IMG/VR virus record: IMGVR_UViG_3300041405_000148
Coordinates: 1 to 64,000 of that record
Length of the DNA stretch: 64,000 bases
Reading direction: 5' to 3' (one strand)
From: a virus
The notes under the pieces were generated by a model, which was given only the letters and a program-made list of their open reading frames with translations, did not search any database and had not been told where the DNA came from. Position numbers and translations under genes: made by a program. Below are positions 3,193-61,901 of this stretch, one piece after another (positions within the stretch are counted from its first letter, which is position 1; the number at the start of each line of letters is the position of its first letter).

Positions 3193-5538
3193 TTAATAAC
3201 CCGCAGGAGTGAATCCATTTAAATGTGCTCCGGTCCAGTAGAGTATTACTGTAGTTTCTGTAGTAGCAAACACTGGAGCAATACCTCCTGACCAATTTAC
3301 TGTATTTGTCCAAGATACAGCGCCAGAATTACCTGTAAAGGTAATTACAATAGGCATTGATCTTCCTGTTGGTAGATTAGTTATTGAAAGTGTCCTGGCA
3401 GTACTTAAATCAACAGTAAATGTTTGGTTTGAAGAAACATCAAGTGTAGCTGTTGTAGCTACTATTGATAAATCATAACGATTTAACCTTCTCCATGCAC
3501 CATTAGAGCGAACATACTGTTGGCCTGCAACGGCTGGTGCTTCATCTATTGGTGTGAAAGTTACCCATGCTCCACTATTTCTGGCATAAAAAGTACCATC
3601 ATTTGGGGCATCTGAAATACCAGCTGCAACAACAGCCCAACCACCATTTTTTCTGGCATATTGTGACCCATCATTTGGTGCTTCTCTTACTGCAAGTGAA
3701 GACCAAGCTCCATCTTGACGTACATATGGGGTTCCATCACTAGGTGCATCATAAACATTACCACCGCCAAAAGTACCAAGTTGTGACCACTGTGTGTCGC
3801 TGGTTTTTTGGTAATAGATGTTGGTGTCACGATCTATGTAAAAATCACCTTGGCGGCCTGTAACAGCATTTGGTGGTCCAGATAAGTTTATCCATAACGT
3901 ACCTTGTTCACCTTGAATACCTTGAGCACCATCCTGACCGTCAGGCCCTGCTGGACCTACAGGACCAATATTAGTCCCCATATTAACCCAAGAATTACCA
4001 TCCCAGATGTAGGTTTCTCCATTGACATAATACATATCTGCCACATTATTACCAGTTGTTGGCAGGTTTGCAACGTCAGTTAGGTAACCTTTGGCTAATA
4101 CAGAATGTCCGTCTGCACCATCTGTCCCGTCTGTCCCATTCGTACCGTCCGTACCATCTCTTCCGTTTACACCATCTGTGCCTTTGGCACCGTCTAGCCC
4201 TTGGTAAGAAACAGAGTAGCTTGTTACTGTTGTTGAATCTGTTAAAGTGTATAGTACCCTAGTCCACAGGTATTGACCTTGTGCTAAGATTGGCACTGTC
4301 GATGACCAAACTCCAGTTGGAGGTGTGGTTGGGTCAAGACTTAGTTGATATGTAACATCAGTGCTGGCTATTCCAATTCCGTCTTTTCCGTCAACACCAT
4401 CCTCTCCTGCAATCTTACCAACATTTGTAAAACTTGTTGCATCAGTTAACCAGATAAAAAGTTCATTATCTGCACCAACCAGATATGCATCACCAGCAGA
4501 AGCTGTTGTAGGTAAGTCAGATTGTGTATCTAGATGATCAAGGATCTCAATCCCTGCACCATCCTTGCCCGGCACACCTTGTATACCTTGTGGTCCATCA
4601 ATGCCATCCCGGCCATCCTTTCCGTCCAGACCGTCTTTTCCATCTACACCATCAGCACCCGGATCACCTTTAGTGCCTTGTGGGCCTTGTATTTTACCTA
4701 AGTTTACCCATGATGCCCCATTTGAAACGAATGCTTCTAGATTTATAACATAAAGCCAATTAAGATTATCTTGACCAGATTGAGGTAAACTGTTAACATC
4801 TGCCAGTGTTCCCCTGAAATCAAGAGCTACAGCATTAGCACCTTGTGGACCAGTAGAACCTTGTGGACCAGGATCTCCTTTAACACCTTTTTGAGCTATT
4901 AAGAAGTCAGTTTGTGTCCCTTGATTACCAGCCGCTAACCAAATTTGATATGTCGATTTACCTTCAGGTCCTTGCTCACCAACAACAGACCATTGTGTTG
5001 AATCCCAAACCCACATTTGCTCTTGGATAATGTAAGCATCACCAGGTTTGTTATTAGTTTTTGGTAGATTATCTGTAGAAGCAAAAGACCCTCGTATGTT
5101 TAAGCCAGAGCCAGTTGTACCCTTTAATGAGTCCAACCATTGTTGTTCTGTTTTTACTGGTGAGTCTGTAGTTGTATCTACATAAATTTCGTAAGCGGAT
5201 TTACCGCCTGGAGATTTTTCTAAAGAAAGTACCCTATTGTCAAGGTTTTTGTAATCAGAGGAAATTGCATCTAAGTAACTACCATTACCTCTGTTAATCC
5301 AAGCAATAGAGGATACACCACCTGTATCATTAGGTACAGAGTTTTTTGGAACCACCTTAGGTAGGCTACCCATCCATTGGTAATAGTTACCATCTCCACC
5401 TGATGAAGTTGACCACAGAAGGATCTCTCTTTGTTGTGTTAAAGTAAAACCAGTAGAGAAAGAACCTCTCTTTCTATAATAAGCTTCTTCTGTATCAGAA
5501 GTGTAACTATTTGGCCTTGTTAATTTAAATTCTGCCAT
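3193..5538 (-). CDS. Tail fibre with collagen-like repeats
   Basis: A 781-residue fibre. The N-terminal segment MAEFKLTRPNSYTSDTEEAY looks like a virion-attachment domain. It is followed by several Gly-X-Y stretches (GPQGSTGPQG, KDGLDGKDGRDGIDGPQG, TDGTNGTDGTDGADG). Between them are repeated 'LPTTG..DAY.V...L..WD...W..VG' modules, which look like beta-structured knobs. Near the C terminus there are four copies of an 'AP.DG..YAR..GAW' repeat. Such collagen-like shafts are common in phage fibres and trimerise. I set the start at 5538, where GAGG precedes the ATG, rather than an in-frame codon five residues upstream. Confidence 0.8.
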   Translation of the reverse strand: MAEFKLTRPNSYTSDTEEAYYRKRGSFSTGFTLTQQREILLWSTSSGGDGNYYQWMGSLPKVVPKNSVPNDTGGVSSIAWINRGNGSYLDAISSDYKNLDNRVLSLEKSPGGKSAYEIYVDTTTDSPVKTEQQWLDSLKGTTGSGLNIRGSFASTDNLPKTNNKPGDAYIIQEQMWVWDSTQWSVVGEQGPEGKSTYQIWLAAGNQGTQTDFLIAQKGVKGDPGPQGSTGPQGANAVALDFRGTLADVNSLPQSGQDNLNWLYVINLEAFVSNGASWVNLGKIQGPQGTKGDPGADGVDGKDGLDGKDGRDGIDGPQGIQGVPGKDGAGIEILDHLDTQSDLPTTASAGDAYLVGADNELFIWLTDATSFTNVGKIAGEDGVDGKDGIGIASTDVTYQLSLDPTTPPTGVWSSTVPILAQGQYLWTRVLYTLTDSTTVTSYSVSYQGLDGAKGTDGVNGRDGTDGTNGTDGTDGADGHSVLAKGYLTDVANLPTTGNNVADMYYVNGETYIWDGNSWVNMGTNIGPVGPAGPDGQDGAQGIQGEQGTLWINLSGPPNAVTGRQGDFYIDRDTNIYYQKTSDTQWSQLGTFGGGNVYDAPSDGTPYVRQDGAWSSLAVREAPNDGSQYARKNGGWAVVAAGISDAPNDGTFYARNSGAWVTFTPIDEAPAVAGQQYVRSNGAWRRLNRYDLSIVATTATLDVSSNQTFTVDLSTARTLSITNLPTGRSMPIVITFTGNSGAVSWTNTVNWSGGIAPVFATTETTVILYWTGAHLNGFTPAGY

Positions 5539-55255: not shown

Positions 55256-56005
55256 ATGCGTAGGCTAATTCTTATCTCAGGTGCTGGACTTTCTGTTGAA
55301 AGTGGTATCAGGGCTTTTCGTACAGACACTGATTCTGGTAAAGCAATGTGGGATGAATATGACTTAGAAGAAGTTTGTAACATCCATGCATTCCGTGGTA
55401 ACTTCTACCATAAGACACATAACTTTTATAACAAGCGTCGCGTGGAGTTGGGTACAGTAGAGCCTAACCTTGCACATTGTAGAATCGCAGAATGGTCCAA
55501 AGCTTATGCAGGTCAAGTTGTAAACATCACAACAAATGTTGATGATCTACTAGAGCGGGCTGGTGTGTTTGGTGAAGTTCTACACGTTCATGGTTTTCTT
55601 CCTGAAATTATAGTCCAAGATGAACCTTTGCAAGTTAAGAGAGTAGAGAACGTAGGTTACAATGAGATTAACCCTGATGATTATGAATGGTGTAAACCTA
55701 ACGTAGTTTTCTTTGGAGAAAACGCACCTTTATACGGTGAGATGTATTCCATCTTAGACTCTTTGACAGTTCAGGATTTGGTTATTGTGGTTGGTTGTTC
55801 TAACCAAGTGATTAACTTCTTTTGGGATCTAATCCCTAAAGCAAGGTCTTTAGGTATAAAAATTCATTGTGTTAATCCAGGCACTTTGTATCATGAAGAA
55901 CAGATCATTGAAGAAGTTGGCGGAACCTGCTGGAGAGCTGGTGCAGTTGAAGTTTTCAGCAACCCAAAATTCATTGAAATTGTTGAAAAACATTTGGAGG
56001 GCTGA
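55256..56005 (+). CDS. Sir2-family NAD-dependent protein
   Basis: A 249-residue protein. ISGAGLSVESGIRAFR (residues 7-22) is the NAD-binding GAGxSxxSGIPxFR loop. ITTNVDDLLERAG corresponds to TQNID.L, and LHVHGFL holds the catalytic His. PNVVFFGE and VVGCSNQV also fit. Zinc-binding cysteines are missing. It may deacylate proteins or consume NAD+. The phage also carries NAD+-synthesis-type genes. Confidence 0.8.
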   Translation: MRRLILISGAGLSVESGIRAFRTDTDSGKAMWDEYDLEEVCNIHAFRGNFYHKTHNFYNKRRVELGTVEPNLAHCRIAEWSKAYAGQVVNITTNVDDLLERAGVFGEVLHVHGFLPEIIVQDEPLQVKRVENVGYNEINPDDYEWCKPNVVFFGENAPLYGEMYSILDSLTVQDLVIVVGCSNQVINFFWDLIPKARSLGIKIHCVNPGTLYHEEQIIEEVGGTCWRAGAVEVFSNPKFIEIVEKHLEG

Positions 56006-56620: not shown

Positions 56621-57460
56621 ATGAATTACTATAATGAGTGGGACAAGCCAACCGCCAATTGGTTGCGTGAGTTGATAAAAAGGAAACTATTACCGGAGGG
56701 GTATGTAGATGAAAGATCAATTACTGAAGTCACCGCTTCAGACCTGGAAGGATTTACACAATGTCACTTTTTTGCAGGAATTGGGGGATGGTCAAGGGCT
56801 TTGCAACTCTGTCGTATACCCTCAACTGTCAAATTGTGGACAGGATCACCACCATGCCAACCATTTAGCCAAGCAGGATCACAAAGAGGTAAGTTTGATG
56901 AAAGACACCTTGCCCCAACCTTCCTCAAACTTATTGACCAGTGTAAACCTCCAATCGTGTTTGGAGAGCAGGTTGCAAAAGCGGTTGAAGACGGCTGGCT
57001 CGATGATCTTCACGTTGAGTTTGAAAAACAGGGTTACGCAATCGGGACTTCCATTTTGTCAGGTGGTATCGTCGGTGCACCGCACAAAAGGGAACGATTA
57101 TTTTTCGGGGCAATACGCAGCGTGGTTGACTCCAACCGTCACGAATATTGGAGCAAGGTCTTTAGAGGCAATGGAAAAGCGTATGGCACAGAGATTATCG
57201 ACTGGAAGGAAATCTTTGAGTCCTGGAAATCTATGGGAACAGGTTCGAATGTATTGGGGAGTTGGGACAGTGGAAGACCAAATCTATGCAGAGACGGGAA
57301 GTTCAGAATTATTGAACCCTCTATTCCCTTGTTGGTTAATGGCATTTCCTCTGGAATGGGACGATTGCGGGGCTTCGGTAATGCAATAATTCCCCCTTTG
57401 GCTGCATCTTTTATACAAGATTTCCTAATTTCATGTGATGAAAATATTAAAGGTGGTTAA
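56621..57460 (+). CDS. C5-cytosine DNA methyltransferase
   Basis: A 279-residue enzyme. Motif I FAGIGG (residues 50-55), motif IV GSPPCQPFS with the catalytic Cys, motif VI-like GEQV in place of ENV, and GAPHKRERLFF. The C-terminal part CRDGKFRIIEPSIPLL...GRLRGFGNAIIPPLAASFI carries motifs IX-X. It likely protects phage DNA from restriction. A second gene of 681 bases lies entirely within it in the +1 frame. Confidence 0.85.
   Translation: MNYYNEWDKPTANWLRELIKRKLLPEGYVDERSITEVTASDLEGFTQCHFFAGIGGWSRALQLCRIPSTVKLWTGSPPCQPFSQAGSQRGKFDERHLAPTFLKLIDQCKPPIVFGEQVAKAVEDGWLDDLHVEFEKQGYAIGTSILSGGIVGAPHKRERLFFGAIRSVVDSNRHEYWSKVFRGNGKAYGTEIIDWKEIFESWKSMGTGSNVLGSWDSGRPNLCRDGKFRIIEPSIPLLVNGISSGMGRLRGFGNAIIPPLAASFIQDFLISCDENIKGG
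56709..57389 (+). CDS. Nested gene in +1 frame of methyltransferase (methylase-associated 'LNPxFxxWLMxFPxxW' protein)
   Basis: 226 residues fully inside the methyltransferase gene. It has its own ATG preceded by CGGAGGGG at good spacing. Conserved-looking stretches: LESRLQKRLKTAGSMIFTLS, VTQSGLPFCQVVSSVHRT, WLTPTVTNIGARSLEAMEKR, STGRKSLSPGNLWEQV and LNPLFPCWLMAFPLEWDDCG. These match a module that I know from other phages and bacteria at the C terminus of, or beside, C5 methylases. Such a coherent family signature is not expected by chance in a shadow frame. Confidence 0.6.
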   Translation: MKDQLLKSPLQTWKDLHNVTFLQELGDGQGLCNSVVYPQLSNCGQDHHHANHLAKQDHKEVSLMKDTLPQPSSNLLTSVNLQSCLESRLQKRLKTAGSMIFTLSLKNRVTQSGLPFCQVVSSVHRTKGNDYFSGQYAAWLTPTVTNIGARSLEAMEKRMAQRLSTGRKSLSPGNLWEQVRMYWGVGTVEDQIYAETGSSELLNPLFPCWLMAFPLEWDDCGASVMQ

Positions 57461-60968: not shown

Positions 60969-61901
60969 ATGGCAAAGAACGGACTTTCTAAAGCATTTAA
61001 CGGTTTTGTGGTTTATGAGTCAAATGGCGAATACCCAATTGATATCCAAAAGATCCCAACCGTAGAGAATTTTGATTATTTGAAGTATGAAATCGCAGCA
61101 GAAGATGAAGTTTCTTCTATTGGATTTGAACCTGTTATTGAAATGGAAGTGACGACTGACGGTGAACTTGTTCGTGAAGAAGAATATGTGCATTCTGTCG
61201 GTACTTTTGATGTAATTAAGATCAAACAATCCAAACGAAAGGTTCCTGGGTCAGAGGTTAAAAAGATTGTTTCTGAGAAAACCCGCAAAGCGATTGCTGA
61301 AGCAGAAGAGCGCGGTCAAACGATTAAGGTTAATAAAGAACTTAAAGAAATGTTTAAAGAAGAAGCAATCAAGGAGCTGCTACCTCGCTGCTTTATTGAT
61401 GAATCCAGCACCTTTGTGTTCCTTGACAAAGTTACAGAGAAGCTTTATGTAGCTGTACCTTCTCACAAGAAAGCTGAAGATATTACTGCTTTTATTCGTA
61501 AGACTCTGGGCAGCCTGCCGATCACACCTCTGGTCACAGAGCGTGAGATTGTAAAAGCAATGACACAGTTTGTAACTTCTCAGCTGAATGATAAGATCAC
61601 CTTAGGCGATTTTGTTCAGATGGAAGATGAAGAAGGTGTTGTAGCATGGAAAAAAGAATCACTCTACAACTCTGATGCAAAAGAGCTGATTGAAAATTCC
61701 GAAAAGCTGGTCACAAAACTTGGCCTTAATTTTGATGGCGTAGTTTCTTTTACCATTGACAGTGACTATGTAATCTCAGGTGTTAAGTTTGAGAGTTACG
61801 TTACCGCAGAAGGTCATGACTTCTCATCTACATTCCTGCTGATCGCTAATGAAATCACAGGTGCAGTAAAAGAGCTGTTGAAAGAACTTGGTGAAGAATA
61901 A
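60969..61901 (+). CDS. RdgC-like recombination-associated protein
   Basis: A 310-residue protein. LLPRCFIDESSTFVFLDKVTEKLYVAVPSHKKAEDITAFIRKTLGSLPITPL is the core pattern of RdgC, a DNA-binding ring that inhibits RecA. Flanking helices RKAIAEAEERGQTIKVNKELKEMFKEE and the GDFVQMEDEEGVVAWKKESL strand also fit. RdgC-like proteins occur in Mu and other phages. It may limit host RecA action on phage DNA. Confidence 0.75.
   Translation: MAKNGLSKAFNGFVVYESNGEYPIDIQKIPTVENFDYLKYEIAAEDEVSSIGFEPVIEMEVTTDGELVREEEYVHSVGTFDVIKIKQSKRKVPGSEVKKIVSEKTRKAIAEAEERGQTIKVNKELKEMFKEEAIKELLPRCFIDESSTFVFLDKVTEKLYVAVPSHKKAEDITAFIRKTLGSLPITPLVTEREIVKAMTQFVTSQLNDKITLGDFVQMEDEEGVVAWKKESLYNSDAKELIENSEKLVTKLGLNFDGVVSFTIDSDYVISGVKFESYVTAEGHDFSSTFLLIANEITGAVKELLKELGEE

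What the first reader, a model, noticed from the sequence alone, without database searches (positions are those of the whole stretch)
56709..57389. A complete second gene nested in the cytosine methyltransferase gene
The +1 frame is open for 226 codons, has its own strong Shine-Dalgarno and ATG, and encodes the signature of a methylase-associated module (SLES.L..R...GSMI, WLTPTV, EAMEKR...GR.SLSPGN, LNPLF..WLM.FP..WDDC). The zero frame encodes an equally coherent methyltransferase with motifs I, IV, VI, IX and X. Two conserved proteins overprinted over 680 bases are unusual.
Basis: partly seen in the sequence, partly recalled or inferred. Interest (0 to 1): 0.85.

Follow-up and report, generated by a model that had tools for sequence, protein, structure and literature searches.

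The report
DNA methyltransferase subunits sharing one gene
The same stretch of phage DNA is read in two frames to make two proteins, one carrying the catalytic core of a cytosine DNA methyltransferase and the other most likely carrying its target-recognition part; the arrangement is real and conserved in hundreds of phages and prophages, although one bacterial enzyme with two such polypeptides was described in 1995.

Summary
A 279-aa C5-methyltransferase frame (56621-57460) contains a +1-frame ORF (56709-57389, 226 aa) with its own Shine-Dalgarno and ATG. In 79 relatives picked by the outer frame alone, the +1 frame has no stop between codon 100 and motif IX (about 1.3 stops per locus expected for codons 100-150 after synonymous shuffling); the +2 frame shows no such depletion. 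A search by the nested protein's own motif gave 157 loci, all nested. Substitution patterns show which frame selection reads: the outer frame over motifs I-VIII and X, the nested frame over W-x-TP modules and an LNPxxxxWLMGxPxxW motif that matches C5-MTase motif IX. In a sister group motif IX lies in the outer frame, and selection there switches to the outer frame. So the nested protein is best read as the recognition/motif-IX (beta) subunit of a heterodimeric enzyme, the motif split published for M.EcoHK31I. In the wider family the modules form arrays of 1-5, recur at different positions and look like swappable recognition domains, all in the second frame; I found no description of this. Expression and methylation were not tested.

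The parts
56621..57460 (+). alpha: outer frame, C5 cytosine methyltransferase large subunit (motifs I-VIII and X), 279 aa
   Evidence: ORF; PF00145 8.4e-18; phrog_363 2.5e-65; AlphaFold catalytic part mostly pLDDT >90
56709..57389 (+). beta: nested +1-frame protein, 226 aa, recognition module plus motif IX subunit
   Evidence: ORF; phrog_1008 3.3e-14, matched by all 74 relatives; no Pfam or NCBIfam model
56695..56699 (+). GGAGG Shine-Dalgarno of beta, 9 nt before its ATG
   Evidence: sequence; 179 of 198 relatives have an open +1 ATG at alpha codons 20-40 (144.8 expected by shuffle), 135 with an SD-like 4-mer upstream
56768..56791 (+). alpha motif I (FFAGIGG region, SAM binding)
   Evidence: mostly invariant columns in A2
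56843..56866 (+). alpha motif IV with catalytic Cys79 (GSPPCQPF)
   Evidence: invariant or near-invariant columns; aligned to M.HhaI
56960..56977 (+). alpha motif VI, FGEQVA (EQV in place of ENV)
   Evidence: invariant G115, E116, Q117, V118
57083..57100 (+). alpha motif VIII (HKRERL)
   Evidence: R157 and R159 invariant
57113..57316 (+). alpha stretch between VIII and X, weakly constrained, little structure predicted
   Evidence: alpha pLDDT low over most of this stretch (about 43-61 from residue 180 on); alpha codon position 1 varies most
57123..57311 (+). beta W-x-TP module, single putative target-recognition module (WLTPTVTNIGARS...TGRKSLSPGNLWEQV)
   Evidence: module cluster of 7 loci; beta aa identity 0.72 against alpha 0.44
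57312..57359 (+). beta motif IX (LNPLFPCWLMAFPLEW)
   Evidence: L202, N203, P204, W209, L210, M211, P214, W217 invariant or near-invariant; same motif precedes motif X in-chain in sister enzymes
57362..57424 (+). alpha motif X (RLRGFGNAIIPPLAASFIQDF)
   Evidence: G253 and A255 invariant, N254 and I256 near-invariant; helix at good confidence

Best explanation
The locus encodes both polypeptides of a two-subunit cytosine-5 DNA methyltransferase on the same DNA. The outer frame makes alpha, the SAM-binding catalytic body (motifs I-VIII) plus motif X. A ribosome starting at an internal ATG about 29 codons in makes beta in the +1 frame; beta carries the target-recognition module and motif IX. Along the DNA the usual C5-MTase order is kept (I-VIII, recognition domain, IX, X), but the recognition domain and IX are read in the second frame. 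Alpha and beta are inferred to assemble into one enzyme that methylates a specific site, most likely protecting phage DNA from host restriction. Shown: both frames conserved and under selection, and which segment is selected in which frame. Inferred: translation by internal initiation, assembly, module function, target site, anti-restriction role.
For: Open +1 frame and stop depletion starting only after the nested start. Codon-position divergence between close relatives: alpha position 3 varies most over codons 1-140, alpha position 1 (beta position 3) over codons 140-220, then back after codon 240. In the true module clusters beta aa identity is 0.60-1.0 against 0.23-0.66 for alpha. The motif IX region is beta-selected in window-type enzymes (alpha pos1/pos3 divergence 0.198/0.105) but alpha-selected in sister enzymes that carry motif IX in-chain (0.190/0.453), while the recognition region stays beta-selected there (0.460/0.255). 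Other relatives have an alpha frame ending at or before motif VIII while the beta frame carries modules and IX, in one case also X (L299, L310, L311, L347). All 157 loci reached through the beta motif overlap alpha, in +1 apart from a few frameshifted copies. Literature: M.EcoHK31I consists of two polypeptides, the larger with I-VIII and X, the smaller with IX (PMC3404938).
Against: No expression, interaction or methylation data. The beta model is of low confidence (pLDDT 60) and finds no fold match, so a recognition-domain fold is not shown. Profile alignment of beta to canonical C5-MTases alone lands on motif IX but is not significant (E 0.48); the link depends on the L375-type sister enzymes (E 4.7e-4, probability 32%). 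PMC3404938 places the predicted recognition domain of M.EcoHK31I in the larger subunit. Whether M.EcoHK31I is homologous could not be tested, its sequence not being held. The window has Ala where nearly all relatives have Gly in motif IX (A212).
Confidence: 0.87

Rival explanations
1. The nested frame is not translated; it is open and looks conserved only because the outer protein and base composition are conserved.
For: Overlap with a conserved gene always gives some pseudo-conservation; even the +2 frame exceeds the shuffle null.
Against: Stops absent in +1 but not in +2, and not depleted before the nested start; beta-type substitution pattern in modules, with alpha identity falling to 0.23-0.5 in most clusters while beta stays at 0.6-1.0; frame of selection on motif IX switches with architecture; alpha frame ends early in some relatives while beta stays open.
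Confidence: 0.02
2. One protein made by programmed ribosomal frameshifting from alpha into the +1 frame after motif VIII, instead of two separate polypeptides.
For: Would put I-VIII, modules and IX in one chain; frameshifted or joined variants exist (L384 joins alpha motifs I-VI to beta; L227, L209, L087).
Against: The +1 frame is open from about codon 30, far upstream of VIII, and stops are not depleted before that point; ATG and SD-like sequence at the nested start in most relatives; motif X in the outer frame would be lost from the product; M.EcoHK31I is reported as two polypeptides (PMC3404938).
Confidence: 0.06
3. Beta is a separate accessory protein (for example an anti-restriction or regulatory factor) translated from the same DNA but not part of the methyltransferase.
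For: Beta has no solved relative by sequence and no Pfam or NCBIfam model; much of its N-terminal third is predicted without structure.
Against: Beta's best conserved stretch matches C5-MTase motif IX, which alpha lacks; in sister enzymes that motif sits in alpha just before X; beta always accompanies this alpha.
Confidence: 0.05

Closest known systems
M.EcoHK31I (YGGCCR; alpha and beta polypeptides; Lee, Kam and Shaw 1995, as cited in PMC3404938)
   Same: Two-polypeptide C5-MTase; larger polypeptide with motifs I-VIII and X, smaller with motif IX; from memory (paper not held) the beta gene is nested in alpha in another frame.
   Different: EcoHK31I belongs to a restriction-modification system; no endonuclease was recognised among the window neighbours examined. 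PMC3404938 puts its predicted recognition domain in the larger subunit; here selection puts the variable modules in the small, nested one. Homology untested.
M.AquI (CYCGRG)
   Same: C5-MTase split into two polypeptides.
   Different: M.AquI splits after I-VIII, with distal variable region, IX and X in the small subunit (PMC3404938); here X stays in the large one. L310 comes closer to the AquI division: beta with modules, IX and X.
Multispecific C5-MTases of Bacillus phages (SPR, phi3T, H2)
   Same: Tandem target-recognition domains in a phage orphan MTase (PMC8936443); relatives here carry 1-5 modules.
   Different: Tandem domains there lie within the one MTase coding sequence; here the modules lie in the overprinted frame. 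The window has one module.
PHROG families phrog_1008, phrog_31772 and phrog_363
   Same: phrog_1008 matches all 74 beta proteins and phrog_31772 matches 68; phrog_363 matches alpha; all labelled DNA methyltransferase.
   Different: The labels do not say that the families are encoded on the same DNA.

Membership tests
C5 cytosine DNA methyltransferase (alpha) | Motif I, PCQ catalytic motif IV, motif VI Glu, motif VIII RxR, motif X GN | tested here: met
   all present; VI reads EQV in place of ENV
C5 cytosine DNA methyltransferase (alpha) | Motif IX in the same chain | tested here: not met
   No LTPxExARxQGFP-type motif before X in alpha; canonical enzymes from the same genomes have it; here the matching motif is in beta
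M.EcoHK31I-type two-polypeptide C5-MTase | Large polypeptide I-VIII and X; small polypeptide with IX | tested here: met
   (motif IX assigned through the sister enzymes)
M.EcoHK31I-type two-polypeptide C5-MTase | Small-polypeptide gene nested in the large one in another frame (from memory for EcoHK31I) | tested here: met
   whether EcoHK31I itself is nested could not be checked in held text
M.EcoHK31I-type two-polypeptide C5-MTase | Sequence homology to M.EcoHK31I alpha and beta | not testable with these tools
   EcoHK31I sequence not identifiable in the collections
M.EcoHK31I-type two-polypeptide C5-MTase | Both polypeptides needed for methylation | not testable with these tools
   Needs a bench assay
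M.AquI-type split | Motif X with IX in the small subunit | tested here: not met
   Motif X is in alpha, 57362-57424
Multispecific phage C5-MTase | Several tandem recognition domains | tested here: not met
   Window beta has one W.TP module; many relatives have 2-5

The most novel reading that the evidence does not exclude
A large, largely unrecognised family of phage and prophage C5-MTases keeps its target-recognition modules, as arrays of 1-5 interchangeable cassettes, in the +1 frame of its own catalytic gene. Motif IX (and sometimes X) can pass between frames by frameshift, so one DNA segment evolves new specificities in one frame while serving as a tolerated linker in the other.
Probability: 0.65. 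Interest if true: 0.8.

Novelty: new member of a known kind. Interest (0 to 1): 0.62.

Why it matters
Long same-strand overlaps with two selected proteins are rare and hard to prove. Here hundreds of natural variants show which frame each segment serves, and motif IX switches frame between sister groups. It suggests that many 'DNA cytosine methyltransferase' annotations lack a subunit encoded on the same DNA, so that alpha expressed alone from a recoded gene may be inactive. The module arrays offer a route to predict and swap methylation specificity, and the family is a natural test bed for overprinting.

Tried and rejected
Single-sequence scan of viral contigs with beta: no relatives. Beta AlphaFold model pLDDT 60; Foldseek against PDB gave nothing significant. 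phmmer and hmmsearch of beta against PDB sequences: none. PADLOC: none for beta. Beta against canonical C5-MTases without the sister enzymes: E 0.48. Papers: the 1995 EcoHK31I paper and a 2010 NAR paper are not held; ten searches found no description of this overprinted family. Three plasmid neighbourhoods of relatives gave no R-M partner that would link to EaeI. Module cluster 3 is a misparse of the TWKxxxTPSG region, where alpha is the selected frame; ignored. The family-wide module region mixes different modules, so it is not used; the per-cluster counts are. One Pfam scan failed on wrong coordinates and was not repeated.

Full report
What is there. The outer frame (alpha, 56621-57460, 279 aa) is a C5 cytosine methyltransferase (PF00145 8.4e-18; phrog_363 2.5e-65). 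The +1 ORF (beta, 56709-57389, 226 aa) starts with ATG nine bases after GGAGG. Beta matches phrog_1008 at 3.3e-14 and nothing in Pfam, NCBIfam or PADLOC. The window is part of a 153,309-base virus record. Its nearest methyltransferase relatives among named phages are in Seunavirus and Krischvirus, where only alpha is annotated or there is no annotation at all; some Kagunavirus records annotate both ORFs, the inner one as 'Mte8-like'.

More than chance. tblastn finds beta relatives in 140 phage records. Among 80 IMG/VR loci picked by alpha alone plus named phage loci, all 88 have the +1 frame open over most of alpha: mean 89% against 44% for synonymous shuffles, 66 of 88 individually at or below 1%; the +2 frame matches its null. 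With alpha-picked loci only, +1 stops are absent from codon 100 to motif IX, nearly absent from 36 to 100, and not depleted in codons 1-24. That boundary coincides with the usual beta start (mostly codons 24-39 of alpha), which argues for internal initiation. The shuffles do not model phylogeny, so these numbers are contrasts with the +2 frame and the 5' segment, not exact probabilities.

Which frame is selected where. Alpha position 3 is beta position 2, and alpha position 1 is beta position 3, so the most variable codon position tells which frame constrains a segment. In the five closest relatives alpha position 3 varies most up to about codon 140, alpha position 1 between 140 and 220, and alpha position 3 again after 240. 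Across 1743 pairs the beta motif IX segment varies 0.198/0.066/0.105 at alpha positions 1/2/3, and the segment after it 0.168/0.143/0.395. Beta proteins carry mostly 1-5 modules beginning W-x-TP. Grouping 418 modules gives 23 clusters of four or more; the true modules show beta-type divergence, with alpha-frame identity much lower than beta-frame identity, and the same module type occurs at different positions of different arrays. This looks like shuffling of target-recognition domains. That they recognise DNA is inferred from their place between motifs VIII and IX and their variability.

Motif IX and sister architectures. Beta ends in LNPxxxxWLMGxPxxW. A DNA-pattern scan for the NPxWVEWLMG form found 120 ORFs; in 93 of them the alpha frame holds the C5 motif IV in the ORF that spans the motif. 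One, L375, is different: the same motif lies in the methyltransferase chain itself, directly before motif X. A search with L375 gave 27-29 such enzymes, where motif X follows at a nearly fixed distance (+28, sometimes +40), and 48 relatives with a nested motif. The in-chain enzymes that I translated still have a nested +1 ORF, now shorter and holding modules only, ending about 10 codons before motif IX. There, selection on the recognition region is in the beta frame, while selection on IX-X is in the alpha frame. In other relatives the alpha ORF ends at or before motif VIII and beta carries modules and IX, in L310 also X. The same enzyme parts are thus distributed between the two frames in three ways, which is hard to explain unless both products belong to one enzyme.

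Generality. Searches anchored on the beta motif in viral and in bacterial genome contigs, without asking for alpha, gave 157 loci; in every one beta overlaps alpha, in +1 apart from a few frameshifted copies. Canonical single-chain C5-MTases from the same bacterial genomes have motif IX in-chain and only short +1 open runs. All 74 aligned beta proteins match phrog_1008, so beta is already a recognised phage family; what I did not find in the literature is that it is encoded inside alpha.

Structure. Alpha is predicted with confidence over motifs I-VIII (pLDDT mostly above 90) and at the motif X helix, but not between residues about 180 and 250, the stretch where beta is selected. Beta alone is predicted poorly except for a helix and hairpin at residues 73-123, as may be expected of a subunit that folds on its partner; this is not evidence for the fold.

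Known background. PMC3404938 states that M.EcoHK31I has two polypeptides, the larger with motifs I-VIII, X and a predicted recognition domain, the smaller with motif IX; PMC3439449 calls it naturally split. I recall, without being able to check, that the small gene is nested in the large one. By motif division the window locus is the same kind of enzyme. The selection data suggest that the recognition part of this family sits in the small subunit; whether that also holds for M.EcoHK31I is open. Tandem recognition domains are known from Bacillus phage enzymes (PMC8936443).

Verdict. Real overprinting, most likely a two-subunit phage methyltransferase of the M.EcoHK31I kind. As a single locus it is a new member of a known kind; the family-wide pattern of module arrays in the second frame, and of motif IX moving between frames, is the part that deserves follow-up.

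Noticed in passing
L006:2580-3914 and L005:2580-3926 (Klebsiella phages ZX4 and YX3973): The beta frame runs without a stop past the alpha stop into an endonuclease VII gene in the same frame (annotated as a separate gene in ZX4); a possible beta-endonuclease fusion.
   Followed up: partly
L087, L209, L222, L227: Frameshifted copies in which parts of alpha and beta exchange frames, for example beta N-part joined to alpha motif X; sequencing error, decay or natural fusions.
   Followed up: no
L384 (ORF 4035-5112 in strand coordinates): A single ORF joining alpha motifs I-VI to beta modules and motif IX; possible recent one-chain fusion.
   Followed up: no
55256-56005: Sir2-family gene (PF02146, 3.2e-24) two genes upstream of the methyltransferase in this phage.
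   Followed up: no
60969-61901: RdgC-like gene (PF04381, 8.4e-38), a recombination-associated protein in a phage genome.
   Followed up: no
57342-57344: The window's beta has Ala where nearly all relatives have Gly in motif IX (WLMAFP in place of WLMGFP).
   Followed up: no
L086:2001-2591 (Escherichia phage pangalan): The +1 frame opens only at about alpha codon 60 with no nearby ATG, so beta is N-terminally shorter or starts differently.
   Followed up: no
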